A stretch of 64,000 nucleotides of DNA, from the NCBI GenBank assembly GCA_016463765.1, contig JAEMQS010000006.1:1-64000 (forward strand), in the 5' to 3' direction. The DNA is from Solirubrobacteraceae bacterium (GTDB lineage Bacteria > Actinomycetota > Thermoleophilia > Solirubrobacterales > Solirubrobacteraceae). How positions within the stretch are numbered: the first letter of the stretch is position 1; each line of letters opens with the position of its first letter. Both the position numbers and the translations under genes were made by a program. Below the pieces are notes generated by a model. The model made no database searches, was not told the DNA's origin, and was given only the letters and a program-made list of their open reading frames with translations. Positions 28,407 through 32,696 of this stretch are shown piece by piece.

Positions 28407-28880
28407 TCAGGCCGCGACCCGGTCCCGCTCCGGCCGCACCACGCGCCGCAGCGACCGCCGCGACACCTCGGCCGGAGCCTGCGGCGCCCCGGCATGGCTG
28501 CGACGCGCGTGCTCCCGCGCCACGTGCGCCCGCACGACGTGGAACTCCTCGGTCGGCAGCTCGTAGAGGTTCGCCCCGCCGACGACCGGCTCGCCCTCGA
28601 CGTGCGGGACGTCTTCGGCCCCGCTCTCCGCCAGCCGCACCACGCACAGCAGCGCGAACGCGCAGAGCGCACCGGCGAGCGCGTTCCCCGCCGCGAGCAG
28701 CCCGGCGTGGAGCCCCACGAGATTGACGTAGCCCATGACGGCGTTCACCGACACGCCGACCGACCAGCCGGCGGCCGACTGCCCTTTCGAGCTGCCGGTG
28801 ACCAGCATGGAGACGATCTGCGGGATCACGCCGAAGAGTCCGGCGATGACGGCGAAGGTGGAGAGAATCTGGATGAGCAT
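28407..28880 (-). CDS. PQ-loop/SemiSWEET-like small membrane transporter
   Basis: MLIQILSTFAVIAGLFGVIPQIVSMLVTGSSKGQSAAGWSVGVSVNAVMGYVNL (PQ motif). Confidence 0.7.
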   Translation of the reverse strand: MLIQILSTFAVIAGLFGVIPQIVSMLVTGSSKGQSAAGWSVGVSVNAVMGYVNLVGLHAGLLAAGNALAGALCAFALLCVVRLAESGAEDVPHVEGEPVVGGANLYELPTEEFHVVRAHVAREHARRSHAGAPQAPAEVSRRSLRRVVRPERDRVAA

Positions 28881-29180
28881 CGTGCGTACCGGGGTGGATC
28901 GAGGTTCGGGGTGCGCTCGACCGCGGCGCGTCGTGCGCCGGGACGAGAGGTGAATGAGCGAGCAGAAAGGGCCGCTCGACGAGGCTCTGCGGTGCAGAGC
29001 GATTCGGGCGGCCCATGGCTGGGAGCTGGCCTCGCACTCCCAGTGGGTCTTACGTGTCGCGTGGGCTTGGATATCCCCCGCGGAGGCCGGTCTGTTCTCC
29101 GAGTATCGGACATCCACGAGCGAACTCGACCCTCCTGTGACCACGTGCACACGACCGGCGGTGGCGCACGGGGCCCGCAC

Positions 29181-29190
29181 CTGTATACAG
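29181..29190. promoter_or_regulatory. CTGTATACAG palindrome, candidate FCD-type GntR operator
   Basis: Perfect 10-bp palindrome 95 bp upstream of the DUF1116 gene start. Confidence 0.4.
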
Positions 29191-29284: not shown

Positions 29285-30517
29285 ATGGACACCGAACTGC
29301 ATACACCCTCCGAGGCGCTCGCGCAGTCCGTGGCGCGACTCGCAGCCGCCCGTCCCGTCGTGGTCGACGTCCTCCCCGCGCGTGAGGTGACCGACCACCA
29401 TGCCGCCGGCGGGGTCTCGCACGCCGGGCCGCCGATCACGCCCTCGCGCATGTGCCCGCCGATGCGTGCGGCGCTCGGCGCCGCGCTGACCCTCGAGGGT
29501 GTGGCGGGAACACCGGAGGAGGCCATCGCGCTGGTCGAGTCGGGCGACATCCCCCTGGTCCCGAACCACGGGATCGGCGGCGTCGGCCCGATGTCCGGGA
29601 TCGTCACCGGGTCGATGCCCGTGTGGGTGACCCGCGACGAGGCGACCGGCAAGACCGCCTGGGCGCCGCTGAACGAGGGCTCGGGCCGGGTGCTGCGCTA
29701 CGGGGCCGACGGGCCCGACGTGCTCGAGCGCCTGGCCTGGATGCGCGACACCCTCGCCCCCGCGCTGCGCGTGGCCCTGGACCGCACCGGCCCGCTCGAC
29801 CTCCTCGACCTGCACGTGCGGTCGCTCACCGACGGGGACGAGGCCCACCACCGCACCGAGTCGGGCACCGCGCTGTCGCTCGTCAAGCTCGCGCCCGGCC
29901 TGGAGGACGCCGACCCAGCCGTGCCCCGCTTCATCGCGACCAACGGCCAGTGGTTCCTGAACCTCGCGATGGTCTTCAGCAAGCTTGCGCTGGACTGTGC
30001 CCGCGACGTCGAGGGCTCGCCGCTGCTGACCGCGATCGCGCGCAACGGCGTCGAGGTCGGCATCCAGGTGTCGGGCACCGGCGACCAGTGGTTCGTCGGC
30101 CCGGCCGCGATGCCGGGTCCGGCGCGGCTGTTCGCCGGGTACTCCGAGGCCGACATGAACCGCGACCTCGGAGACTCCGCGATCGTCGAGACCTACGGCC
30201 TGGGCGCGATCGCCGTCGCAGCGTCACCCGAGGCGGCCTTCAACTGCGGGCTCGACCCCGAGGACCGCGAGGCGATCACCACCGAGCTGCGGCAGATCGC
30301 GGCGGGCGAGTCCCCGGACATCCTGCTGCCCAACGGTCGCGGCGCGATCCTCGGCATCGACGCGCTCGCCGTGGCGCGCACGCGCATCTCCCCGCCCGTG
30401 CACACCGGCATCGCCCACGTCCAGCCCGGTGTCGGGCAGATCGGCGCCGGCATCACGCACCCCCCGATCGAGGCGTTCGACGAGTTCGCCGCCCTCGTCT
30501 CGCCGGCCGTGGCGTGA
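29285..30517 (+). CDS. DUF1116 family protein (YlbE/AllG-like)
   Basis: ALTLEGVAGTPEEAIALVESGDIPLVPNHGIGGVGPMSGIVTGSMPVWVTRDEATGKTAWAPLNEG... resembles PF06545 proteins. Confidence 0.8.
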   Translation: MDTELHTPSEALAQSVARLAAARPVVVDVLPAREVTDHHAAGGVSHAGPPITPSRMCPPMRAALGAALTLEGVAGTPEEAIALVESGDIPLVPNHGIGGVGPMSGIVTGSMPVWVTRDEATGKTAWAPLNEGSGRVLRYGADGPDVLERLAWMRDTLAPALRVALDRTGPLDLLDLHVRSLTDGDEAHHRTESGTALSLVKLAPGLEDADPAVPRFIATNGQWFLNLAMVFSKLALDCARDVEGSPLLTAIARNGVEVGIQVSGTGDQWFVGPAAMPGPARLFAGYSEADMNRDLGDSAIVETYGLGAIAVAASPEAAFNCGLDPEDREAITTELRQIAAGESPDILLPNGRGAILGIDALAVARTRISPPVHTGIAHVQPGVGQIGAGITHPPIEAFDEFAALVSPAVA

Positions 30518-31263
30518 GCGCCGATTCGGTCCGCACGCGCCTGCTGGCCGGCCGCGGCGACGGGACCGACGGCGCGCGCTCGGCGGCCGACCGCGTCCAC
30601 GACGAATTGCGACGCGAACTGCTCGCCGGGCGGCTGCCGTACGGCCAGCGCCTGGTCGAGGAGCACCTCGCCGAGCAGTTCTCCACGAGCCGGACCCCCG
30701 TGCGCGAGGCGCTGCGCCGCCTGGAGAGCGACGGGCACATCGTCCGGGACCCGGCCGGCGGCGTGCGGCCGAACCCACCCCGCGTGTCATCCATGCGCGA
30801 CGTCTACGCGGTGCGCTTCGTCCTCGAGGATCTCGTCGTGACCCTGGCAGCGCGCGGCGGCGAGCGGGCCGACCGCGCGGAGTTGCTGCGGCTGCGCGAG
30901 GACTGGATCGAGCTGCGCGACGACTGGCCGGCGCTCCGCGACCGCATCGAGTGGCCGGACTTCGTCCACGCCGACGAGAGCTTCCACCTGGGCCTGGCCC
31001 GCGCGTCGGGGAACCGGGCCGCGGTGCGCTACCTGCGCGACGTCAACGAGCGCATCCGGGTCCTGCGCATCCACGACTTCACGACCGAGGACCGCATCGA
31101 CGCGACGATCACCGAGCACCTCGAGATCGTCGAGGCCGCCTGCGCCGGGGAGGTCGCGACGGCCACCGCGCTCATGGCCACGCACGTCGAGGCCAGCGCC
31201 GCGGTGGTCGAGCAGCGGGTGGGCGAGCTGCTCGCGCGGATGTTCGAAGCGGGAACCACATGA
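30514..31263 (+). CDS. GntR family (FCD/FadR subfamily) transcriptional regulator
   Basis: GTG start overlapping preceding TGA; RVHDELRRELLAGRLPYGQRLVEEHLAEQFSTSRTPVREALRRLESDGHI plus FCD domain. Confidence 0.92.
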   Translation: MSADSVRTRLLAGRGDGTDGARSAADRVHDELRRELLAGRLPYGQRLVEEHLAEQFSTSRTPVREALRRLESDGHIVRDPAGGVRPNPPRVSSMRDVYAVRFVLEDLVVTLAARGGERADRAELLRLREDWIELRDDWPALRDRIEWPDFVHADESFHLGLARASGNRAAVRYLRDVNERIRVLRIHDFTTEDRIDATITEHLEIVEAACAGEVATATALMATHVEASAAVVEQRVGELLARMFEAGTT

Positions 31264-32696
31264 GCGTCGCGACCGACGCCTTCGCGCAGGCGCTCGGCAC
31301 CCTGGCCGCGCAGCCGCAGGAGCCGCCGGACCGGCCGCCGGCGTACGACGTCTTCGGCGCGAAGCAGGCGCAGGGCGCGACGGGCACGACGCTCGCCGAC
31401 CTCCCGGCCACCGGGAGGATCGCCGCGCTCACCTCGGCCCTGCGCGCGGGGAAGACGACCAGCGAGCGGCTCGTGCGCGAGGCCCTGGACCTGATCGCCG
31501 CCGAGAACGACGAGCTGACCGCGTTCGTGGAGGTCCATGCCGCCGAGGCGCTCGCCGTGGCGGCCGAGCGCGACACCCAGCTCGCGACCGGCACGGTGCT
31601 CGGCCCACTCCACGGGCTGCCCATCTCGGTGAAGGACGTCATCGACGTCGGTGGCATGACGACGCGTTGCGGCTCGGACGCCTACGAGGAGCACCCGGCC
31701 GACGACGCGGCGGCCGTCGCGCTGCTGCGCGCGGCCGGGGCGATCGTCCTCGGCAAGACCGCCACGCACGAGTTCGCGCTCGGCGTGACGAGCCCGCAGT
31801 CGCGCAACCCGCACGACCGCACCCGCATCCCGGGCGGCTCGTCCGGCGGGTCGGCCGTCGCCGTGACGACGGGCATGAGCGTCGTCTCGCTGGGCACCGA
31901 CACCCGCGCGTCGATCCGCGTCCCGGCGGCGTTGTGCGGCATCGTCGGGATGCGCCCGACCTACGGGACGTCGCCGACCGCCGGCATGGTCCCGCTCTCC
32001 TGGACCATGGACACGACGGCGCTCCTCGCGCCCACGGTCGCCGATGTCGCCGTCGCGATGGACGTCATCCGCCCGACGGTCGACCCCGTAGCCGGTGCCG
32101 TCGACGCGCCCGTCGACACCCTGCGCGTGGGGATCCCGCGCGCCGCGTGGGAGGACGTCACCCCGGTCGTCGACGCCGCCGTCGAGGGCGCGCTGGCCCG
32201 GCTCGCGGGTCTCGTCGCCGACGTCGGCGAGCTGCGCCGGCCCGACGCCGCCGACTTCGCCGCCGGCAACGCGCTCGGCCTCATCGTCTCGCGGTCCGAG
32301 GCCGCAGCGTTTCACCGCGCCGCGGGCCTCGACCGATCCCGGTACTGGGACGAAGTCCGCGACCAGCTCGACGCGGCAGACGGCGTGCTCGCCATCGACT
32401 ACATCGACGCCCAGCGGTCCCGTGCCGCGCTGCACGACGAGATGCGCGGCGTCTTCGAGCTCGCCGACGTGCTCGCCATGCCGACCACGCCGGTGCAGGC
32501 GCCGCCGGCCGAGGACGCCGAGGACTACCTGACCGTCCTGTCGCGCAACGCGATCCTGTGGAGCTTCGTCGGGTTCCCGGCGATCTCCATCCCCTGCCCG
32601 GTTCCCGACGGCGAGCTCCCGGTGGGGCTCCAGCTCGTGGCCGCGCCGGGCGGAGAGGCGACGCTCATCGCGCTGGCGGCCGCGCTGACCTCGTAG
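31260..32696 (+). CDS. Amidase signature family hydrolase
   Basis: ISVKDVIDVGG (Lys), IPGGSSGGSAVAV, SLGTDTRASIRVPAALCGIVGMRPTYG. Confidence 0.92.
   Translation: MSVATDAFAQALGTLAAQPQEPPDRPPAYDVFGAKQAQGATGTTLADLPATGRIAALTSALRAGKTTSERLVREALDLIAAENDELTAFVEVHAAEALAVAAERDTQLATGTVLGPLHGLPISVKDVIDVGGMTTRCGSDAYEEHPADDAAAVALLRAAGAIVLGKTATHEFALGVTSPQSRNPHDRTRIPGGSSGGSAVAVTTGMSVVSLGTDTRASIRVPAALCGIVGMRPTYGTSPTAGMVPLSWTMDTTALLAPTVADVAVAMDVIRPTVDPVAGAVDAPVDTLRVGIPRAAWEDVTPVVDAAVEGALARLAGLVADVGELRRPDAADFAAGNALGLIVSRSEAAAFHRAAGLDRSRYWDEVRDQLDAADGVLAIDYIDAQRSRAALHDEMRGVFELADVLAMPTTPVQAPPAEDAEDYLTVLSRNAILWSFVGFPAISIPCPVPDGELPVGLQLVAAPGGEATLIALAAALTS

What the first reader, a model, noticed from the sequence alone, without database searches (positions are those of the whole stretch)
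29285..32696. Orphan DUF1116 gene in a tight operon with an FCD-GntR regulator and an amidase
DUF1116 (YlbE/AllG-like), GntR and amidase genes overlap by 4 nt at each junction (GTGA, ATGA). In enterobacterial allantoin metabolism the DUF1116 protein works with FdrA/AllF and a DUF2877 protein (AllH) in an oxamate carbamoyltransferase. Neither partner is visible in this window. A DUF1116 protein paired only with an amidase suggests a different carbamoyl/amide-transfer or degradation pathway; flanking Gfo/Idh/MocA and ALDH genes could process the carbon product.
Basis: partly seen in the sequence, partly recalled or inferred. Interest (0 to 1): 0.6.

Follow-up and report, generated by a model that had tools for sequence, protein, structure and literature searches.

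The report
Partnerless AllG protein in triuret-degradation regulon
A soil actinobacterium carries, without either of its usual partners, one subunit of a three-part enzyme that cuts carbamoyl groups off nitrogen waste compounds, and its relatives always keep this gene with enzymes that break down triuret and biuret (urea-fertiliser by-products), so it is probably a repurposed enzyme of that pathway rather than part of allantoin breakdown.

Summary
The three-gene operon is real (DUF1116/AllG 29285-30517, GntR-FCD 30514-31263, amidase 31260-32696; 4-nt overlaps), and no FdrA/AllF or DUF2877/AllH was found anywhere in the host genome. But the amidase is not the defining partner. The window protein belongs to a well-supported DUF1116 clade (100/100) found only in this family (18 of 146 genomes; 1 of those 18 has AllF/AllH, for a second, canonical DUF1116). 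All 18 also carry a triuret hydrolase (TrtA)-type gene; 15 have it beside DUF1116 with a shared permease. Two sister species carry a biuret hydrolase (biuH) between GntR and the amidase; in the window that gene is missing, and matching 5' ends of biuH and the amidase gene suggest a deletion. TrtA plus permease and an allophanate hydrolase lie elsewhere in the same genome. Best reading: a stand-alone AllG homologue recruited to oligo-urea (triuret/biuret) nitrogen use, probably acting on a ureido-carboxylate (1-carboxybiuret or allophanate) that resembles oxalurate, AllFGH's substrate. The link to triuret/biuret is strong; the reaction itself is inferred. New variant of a known kind.

The parts
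29285..30517 (+). Stand-alone DUF1116 (AllG-type) protein, 410 aa
   Evidence: PF06545 226 bits; AlphaFold model pLDDT 94, Foldseek 3clq TM 0.94 and no other fold match; tree clade 100/100
30514..31263 (+). FCD-type GntR regulator, 249 aa; homologue (50% identity or more) next to DUF1116 wherever the contig reaches
   Evidence: PF00392 + PF07729
31260..32696 (+). Amidase-signature enzyme, 478 aa; catalytic Lys125, cis-Ser194/195 and Ser218 kept; closest NCBIfam models PRK07056 and AtzE, none over cut-off
31254..31275 (+). Junction where biuH is missing: GntR stop fused to amidase ATGAGCGTCGCGACC; in sister species a 0.68-kb biuH lies between, its start GTGAGCGTC (L004) or GTGATCGTCGCGGCC (L005) matching the amidase start
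29181..29190 (.). CTGTATACAG palindrome, candidate GntR operator about 95 bp upstream of DUF1116
   Evidence: TGTATACA kept in both sister species and in the DUF1116-trtA intergenic region of L025, L045, L053; 0 GTATAC in 130 kb of control loci

Best explanation
This is a local oligo-urea (triuret/biuret) nitrogen-use operon built around an AllG paralogue that works without AllF and AllH. Expected flow in this genome: a permease imports triuret or a related compound; TrtA (contig C164) hydrolyses triuret to 1-carboxybiuret + NH3; the operon's DUF1116 protein and/or amidase act on the resulting N-carbamoyl carboxylate (1-carboxybiuret or allophanate); allophanate hydrolase (contig C8) finishes to NH3 + CO2. 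GntR binds the TGTATACA palindrome and controls the unit. The DUF1116 protein probably cleaves a ureido-carboxylate chemically like oxalurate (H2N-CO-NH-CO-COO-), the AllFGH substrate, by hydrolysis or phosphorolysis. Shown: gene content, clade, TrtA/BiuH association, absence of AllF/AllH, missing biuH, retained AllG core residues. Inferred: that biuH was lost by deletion, the substrate, the reaction, the operator's role and the permease's substrate.
For: Clade: 14 stand-alone sequences form one group, 100/100 support; 36 other DUF1116 genes sit directly beside fdrA. Co-occurrence in 146 family genomes: TrtA-type gene in 18/18 stand-alone genomes versus 3/128 others, Fisher p = 3e-20 (not corrected for phylogeny); AllF and AllH in 1/18, and that genome (G165) has a second, canonical DUF1116 on the contig with fdrA and arcC. 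Physical linkage DUF1116-trtA-permease in 15 of 18; in the 3 same-genus genomes TrtA + permease is a second locus. Family assignment: sister biuH passes the NCBIfam BiuH cut-off, 414 > 370; hydrolases split into a TrtA clade containing crystallised TrtA 6xix and a BiuH clade containing 6azo and 6xjm. L026 has an equivalog allophanate hydrolase in the same cluster, 724 > 511; own genome has amidase + AH_C. Every TrtA genome without BiuH has the stand-alone DUF1116 (14/14, versus 4/7 with BiuH, p = 0.03), and the six genomes lacking the AH_C domain all have the in-operon amidase. About 70 positions, including H46, H95, NEG130-132, GDE184-186, H188, R190, K233, RNG253-255, W269, D294, GDS296-298, E302, D359 and Q385, are conserved in both classes, while 11 class-fixed positions change, several beside these motifs: C94N, L133S, N189H, N191T, N373H. 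Independent precedent: biuH/trtA next to complete allFGHK in nitrifiers (PMC12625717); an E. coli plasmid has TrtA-type gene + allHFG + arcC + AH_C.
Against: E. coli AllG alone gave no oxamate, and all three subunits were needed for full activity (PMC11326118), so a lone AllG may need an unknown partner or may only bind or regulate. No carbamate kinase was seen in the clusters. The window genome has no BiuH match and its TrtA is on another contig, so co-function is inferred from relatives. Co-occurrence counts are phylogenetically non-independent. Permease: no Pfam or NCBIfam match and a poor model (pLDDT 48).
Confidence: 0.6

Rival explanations
1. The stand-alone DUF1116 is not an enzyme by itself but a binding or regulatory subunit that pairs with the co-encoded amidase or TrtA/BiuH hydrolase.
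For: AllG is obligatory but insufficient in E. coli; the genes are translationally coupled here.
Against: The amidase is absent in half the clade, so it cannot be a required partner; the conserved polar core is retained, unlike a degenerate pseudo-enzyme.
Confidence: 0.2
2. It forms an AllFGH-like carbamoyltransferase with diverged or unrelated AllF/AllH substitutes (e.g. SucCD) encoded elsewhere.
For: AllF is related to succinyl-CoA synthetase; SucD-like proteins exist in the genome.
Against: SucD-like proteins also match in 10 of 14 control genomes; no fdrA or DUF2877 in single-contig genomes G010 and G020 that carry the clade; no carbamate kinase in the clusters.
Confidence: 0.12
3. The window operon is decaying after loss of biuH and no longer does anything relevant.
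For: biuH missing; DUF1116 is split by a frameshift in the sister S. abyssi assembly.
Against: dN/dS 0.11-0.23 for all three genes; intact frames; genus g12 has the same set without biuH.
Confidence: 0.08

Closest known systems
AllG (YlbE) of the E. coli oxamic transcarbamylase AllFGH (PMC11326118) and Enterococcus faecalis DUF1116 protein PDB 3clq
   Same: Family PF06545, same fold (TM 0.94, 36% identity to 3clq), conserved polar core
   Different: No AllF and AllH in the genome, no carbamate kinase in the cluster, 11 class-fixed substitutions several of which flank core motifs, neighbours belong to triuret/biuret use
TrtA-BiuH-AtzF triuret/biuret pathway of Herbaspirillum and Rhizobium (PMC7948467)
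   Same: TrtA-type hydrolase and allophanate hydrolase in the genome; BiuH in sister species
   Different: Adds a DUF1116 protein and, in two genera, an amidase; window genome lacks a BiuH match; TrtB/AtzH not seen in these clusters
biuH/trtA + allFGHK + gatA-like amidohydrolase clusters of ammonia oxidisers (PMC12625717)
   Same: DUF1116 next to biuret/triuret hydrolases and, in some, an amidase-signature gene
   Different: Those carry all of AllFGH plus carbamate kinase; here AllG alone

Membership tests
DUF1116 / AllG protein family (PF06545) | Profile match and fold | tested here: met
   226 bits vs cut-off 27; TM 0.94 to 3clq
AllFGH oxamic transcarbamylase | AllF (FdrA) partner | tested here: not met
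   Absent in own genome and in 17 of 18 clade genomes
AllFGH oxamic transcarbamylase | AllH (DUF2877) partner | tested here: not met
   Absent in own genome and in 17 of 18 clade genomes
AllFGH oxamic transcarbamylase | Carbamate kinase in the cluster | tested here: not met
   arcC matches only beside canonical DUF1116 genes; rest of own genome not searched
AllFGH oxamic transcarbamylase | Oxamate/oxalurate carbamoyl transfer activity | not testable with these tools
   needs enzyme assay
Triuret/biuret degradation pathway | TrtA-type isochorismatase-like hydrolase with Cys-Asp-Lys triad | tested here: met
   C164 of own genome (copy truncated by the contig end, Asp region missing), TrtA clade; triad intact in relatives
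Triuret/biuret degradation pathway | BiuH biuret hydrolase | tested here: not met
   Not found in own genome; present in the orthologous operon of both sister species, over cut-off for L005
Triuret/biuret degradation pathway | Allophanate hydrolase (amidase + AH_C) | tested here: met
   Own genome C8; also in L026 cluster
AtzE 1-carboxybiuret hydrolase or AtzF allophanate hydrolase (for the window amidase) | Curated model cut-off | tested here: not met
   AtzE 255 vs 426 bits; allophanate hydrolase 190 vs 511; no AH_C domain
Amidase signature family | Ser-cisSer-Lys triad | tested here: met
   K125, S194/S195, S218 conserved

The most novel reading that the evidence does not exclude
A single-subunit DUF1116 enzyme has evolved from the AllFGH complex to cleave 1-carboxybiuret (or biuret/allophanate) directly, replacing the TrtB/BiuH steps of triuret degradation: the first partner-free AllG activity, showing that the catalytic site for ureido-carboxylates lies in AllG.
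Probability: 0.3. Interest if true: 0.72.

Novelty: new variant of a known kind. Interest (0 to 1): 0.52.

Why it matters
AllFGH was identified only in 2024 as a transcarbamylase unrelated to known ones, and the paper does not say which subunit does the chemistry. A natural AllG lineage that has dispensed with both partners and is tied to a defined substrate class (triuret/biuret) gives a direct way to find out, and adds a possible alternative route for breaking down urea-fertiliser by-products in soil actinobacteria.

Tried and rejected
Pairing DUF1116 + amidase as the defining unit: rejected, present in only 9 of 18 genomes. Role of Gfo/Idh/MocA and ALDH: rejected, not linked outside the genus. 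Hidden FdrA: the matches are SucD-like. A Rfam riboswitch upstream: no match. Fold analogy for DUF1116 beyond 3clq: none. Permease identity: no family match and a low-confidence model, not interpreted.

Full report
OBSERVATION. The three genes, their coordinates and both 4-nt overlaps are exactly as described, and Pfam confirms AllG/DUF1116, GntR+FCD and Amidase. The window lies in a 4.57-Mb, 252-contig, 89%-complete genome of the genus Svornostia (NCBI: Solirubrobacterales, Baekduiaceae; same-genus genome G001 carries the S. abyssi locus). That genome has one DUF1116 gene, no DUF2877/AllH, and only SucD-like FdrA matches far below cut-off.

WHAT IS CONSERVED. The orthologous operon was found in S. 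abyssi J379 (L005) and in a MAG titled 'Bifidobacterium breve' (L004). Both have a fourth gene between GntR and amidase. It is a cysteine hydrolase whose best solved relatives are Rhizobium biuret hydrolase structures (phmmer 376 bits), and the L005 copy passes the curated biuret amidohydrolase model (414 vs 370 bits). In the window the GntR stop runs straight into the amidase ATG. The start regions of biuH and of the amidase share TGAGCGTC in L004, and a similar stretch in L005, which makes deletion between short repeats the simplest account. L005 is closer to the window than L004 in GntR and amidase, so biuH was probably ancestral in the genus. The three window genes show dN/dS 0.11-0.23 against sisters, so they look functional.

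CLADE AND PARTNERS. Of 146 genomes of the family, 34 have DUF1116, 6 AllH and 9 FdrA. An 80-row tree puts 14 sequences (58% identity or more to the window) in one clade with 100/100 support; all other sequences found in class and phylum searches are 50% identical or less, and 36 of them have fdrA directly beside. With G001 (frame-split copy), G162, G165 and G166 checked by hand, the clade occupies 18 genomes in genera g1, g9, g12, g18, g19 and g21. All 18 carry a TrtA-type hydrolase gene against 3 of 128 other genomes (Fisher p = 3e-20, phylogeny not corrected). It is beside DUF1116, with a ~545-aa permease, in 15; in the three Svornostia genomes TrtA+permease is a separate locus (own genome C164; L104 and L106). 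A GntR homologue adjoins DUF1116 wherever the contig reaches. Only G165 has FdrA and AllH, and it has a second, long-form DUF1116 on the contig with fdrA and arcC (L176). The amidase is in g1 and g12 only.

PATHWAY. A tree of the hydrolases with sequences of solved enzymes separates a TrtA clade (with 6xix) from a BiuH clade (with 6azo and 6xjm); the Cys-Asp-Lys triad is intact in full-length members (enzymology in PMC7948467). L026 adds a full allophanate hydrolase to the cluster, and the own genome has one on C8 next to a DUF1989 gene and a carboxyltransferase-domain gene. Family genomes G030, G152 and G154 have TrtA + BiuH + AH_C and no DUF1116; in G030 they form one cluster (L101). Two patterns suggest where DUF1116 and the amidase fit: every TrtA genome lacking BiuH has the stand-alone DUF1116 (14/14 vs 4/7, p = 0.03), and the six genomes lacking any AH_C domain (g12) all have the in-operon amidase. 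These are suggestive, not independent samples.

PROTEIN. AlphaFold gives a confident model (pLDDT 94) that matches only PDB 3clq, an AllG-type protein from E. faecalis, so the fold offers no outside analogy. About 70 positions are 95% or more conserved in both canonical and stand-alone groups, while 11 positions fixed in one residue in the canonical group are fixed in another in the stand-alone group, several touching core motifs. That pattern fits a retained catalytic site with changed specificity. Chemically, oxalurate, allophanate and 1-carboxybiuret are all N-carbamoyl carboxylates, which is why a switch from one to another is plausible (inference from known structures of the compounds).

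REGULATION. The palindrome CTGTATACAG lies 95 bp upstream of DUF1116; TGTATACA is conserved in both sisters and recurs in the DUF1116-trtA intergenic space of L025, L045 and L053, with none in 130 kb of control loci. FCD-GntR regulators commonly use such palindromes (own knowledge), so this is a candidate operator.

KNOWN WORK. AllFGH needs all three subunits for full activity in E. coli; single genes gave none and the pairs tested gave 7-16% (PMC11326118). Co-location of biuH/trtA with full allFGHK is reported in ammonia oxidisers (PMC12625717), and a TrtA-type gene lies with allHFG, arcC and a lone AH_C gene on an E. coli plasmid. Among the open-access papers searched, none described AllG without its partners. 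The finding is therefore a new variant: an AllG lineage freed from the complex and tied to triuret/biuret use. The reaction remains to be shown.

Noticed in passing
window 28966-29100: About 130-nt intergenic block, far more conserved across the three Svornostia genomes than its flanks, strongly folding (z about -2.6 on both strands) with paired compensatory changes in one hairpin (CTCTGC/GCAGAG vs CCCCGC/GCGGGG); no Rfam match. Lies upstream of the putative GntR operator, so perhaps the 5' leader of the divergent gene 28407-28880.
   Followed up: partly
window 28407-28880 (-): 157-aa membrane protein with a PQ-loop-like motif (GLFGVIPQIVSML), divergent from the operon and kept in both sister species; no Pfam match at E<=0.001.
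   Followed up: partly
L093, L094, L096 (genera g13 and g22): Another DUF1116 lineage without FdrA/AllH: DUF1116 genes (tandem in L093) next to glutamine-synthetase-like genes, with a sugar-type ABC transporter in L096.
   Followed up: partly
L099:5420-10527: Very divergent DUF1116 (34% identity) with an amidase, a GntR and genes that look like an ABC transporter: possibly an independent DUF1116-amidase association.
   Followed up: partly
L005:10001-11204: DUF1116 of Svornostia abyssi J379 is split between two frames; assembly error or real pseudogene not resolved.
   Followed up: no
L010 (E. coli plasmid p135-3): TrtA-type hydrolase + DUF2877 + fdrA + DUF1116 + arcC + stand-alone AH_C domain + permease: a possible plasmid-borne triuret/biuret carbamoyl-phosphate pathway.
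   Followed up: partly
L105:1859-12754 (own genome C8): Isochorismatase, oligopeptide-type ABC transporter, DUF1989, carboxyltransferase (CT_A_B + CT_C_D) and allophanate hydrolase: a urea-carboxylase-like operon.
   Followed up: partly
L004 (CAMCUD010000008.1): MAG record titled Bifidobacterium breve carries a contig that is clearly Svornostia-like: probably a mislabelled record.
   Followed up: no
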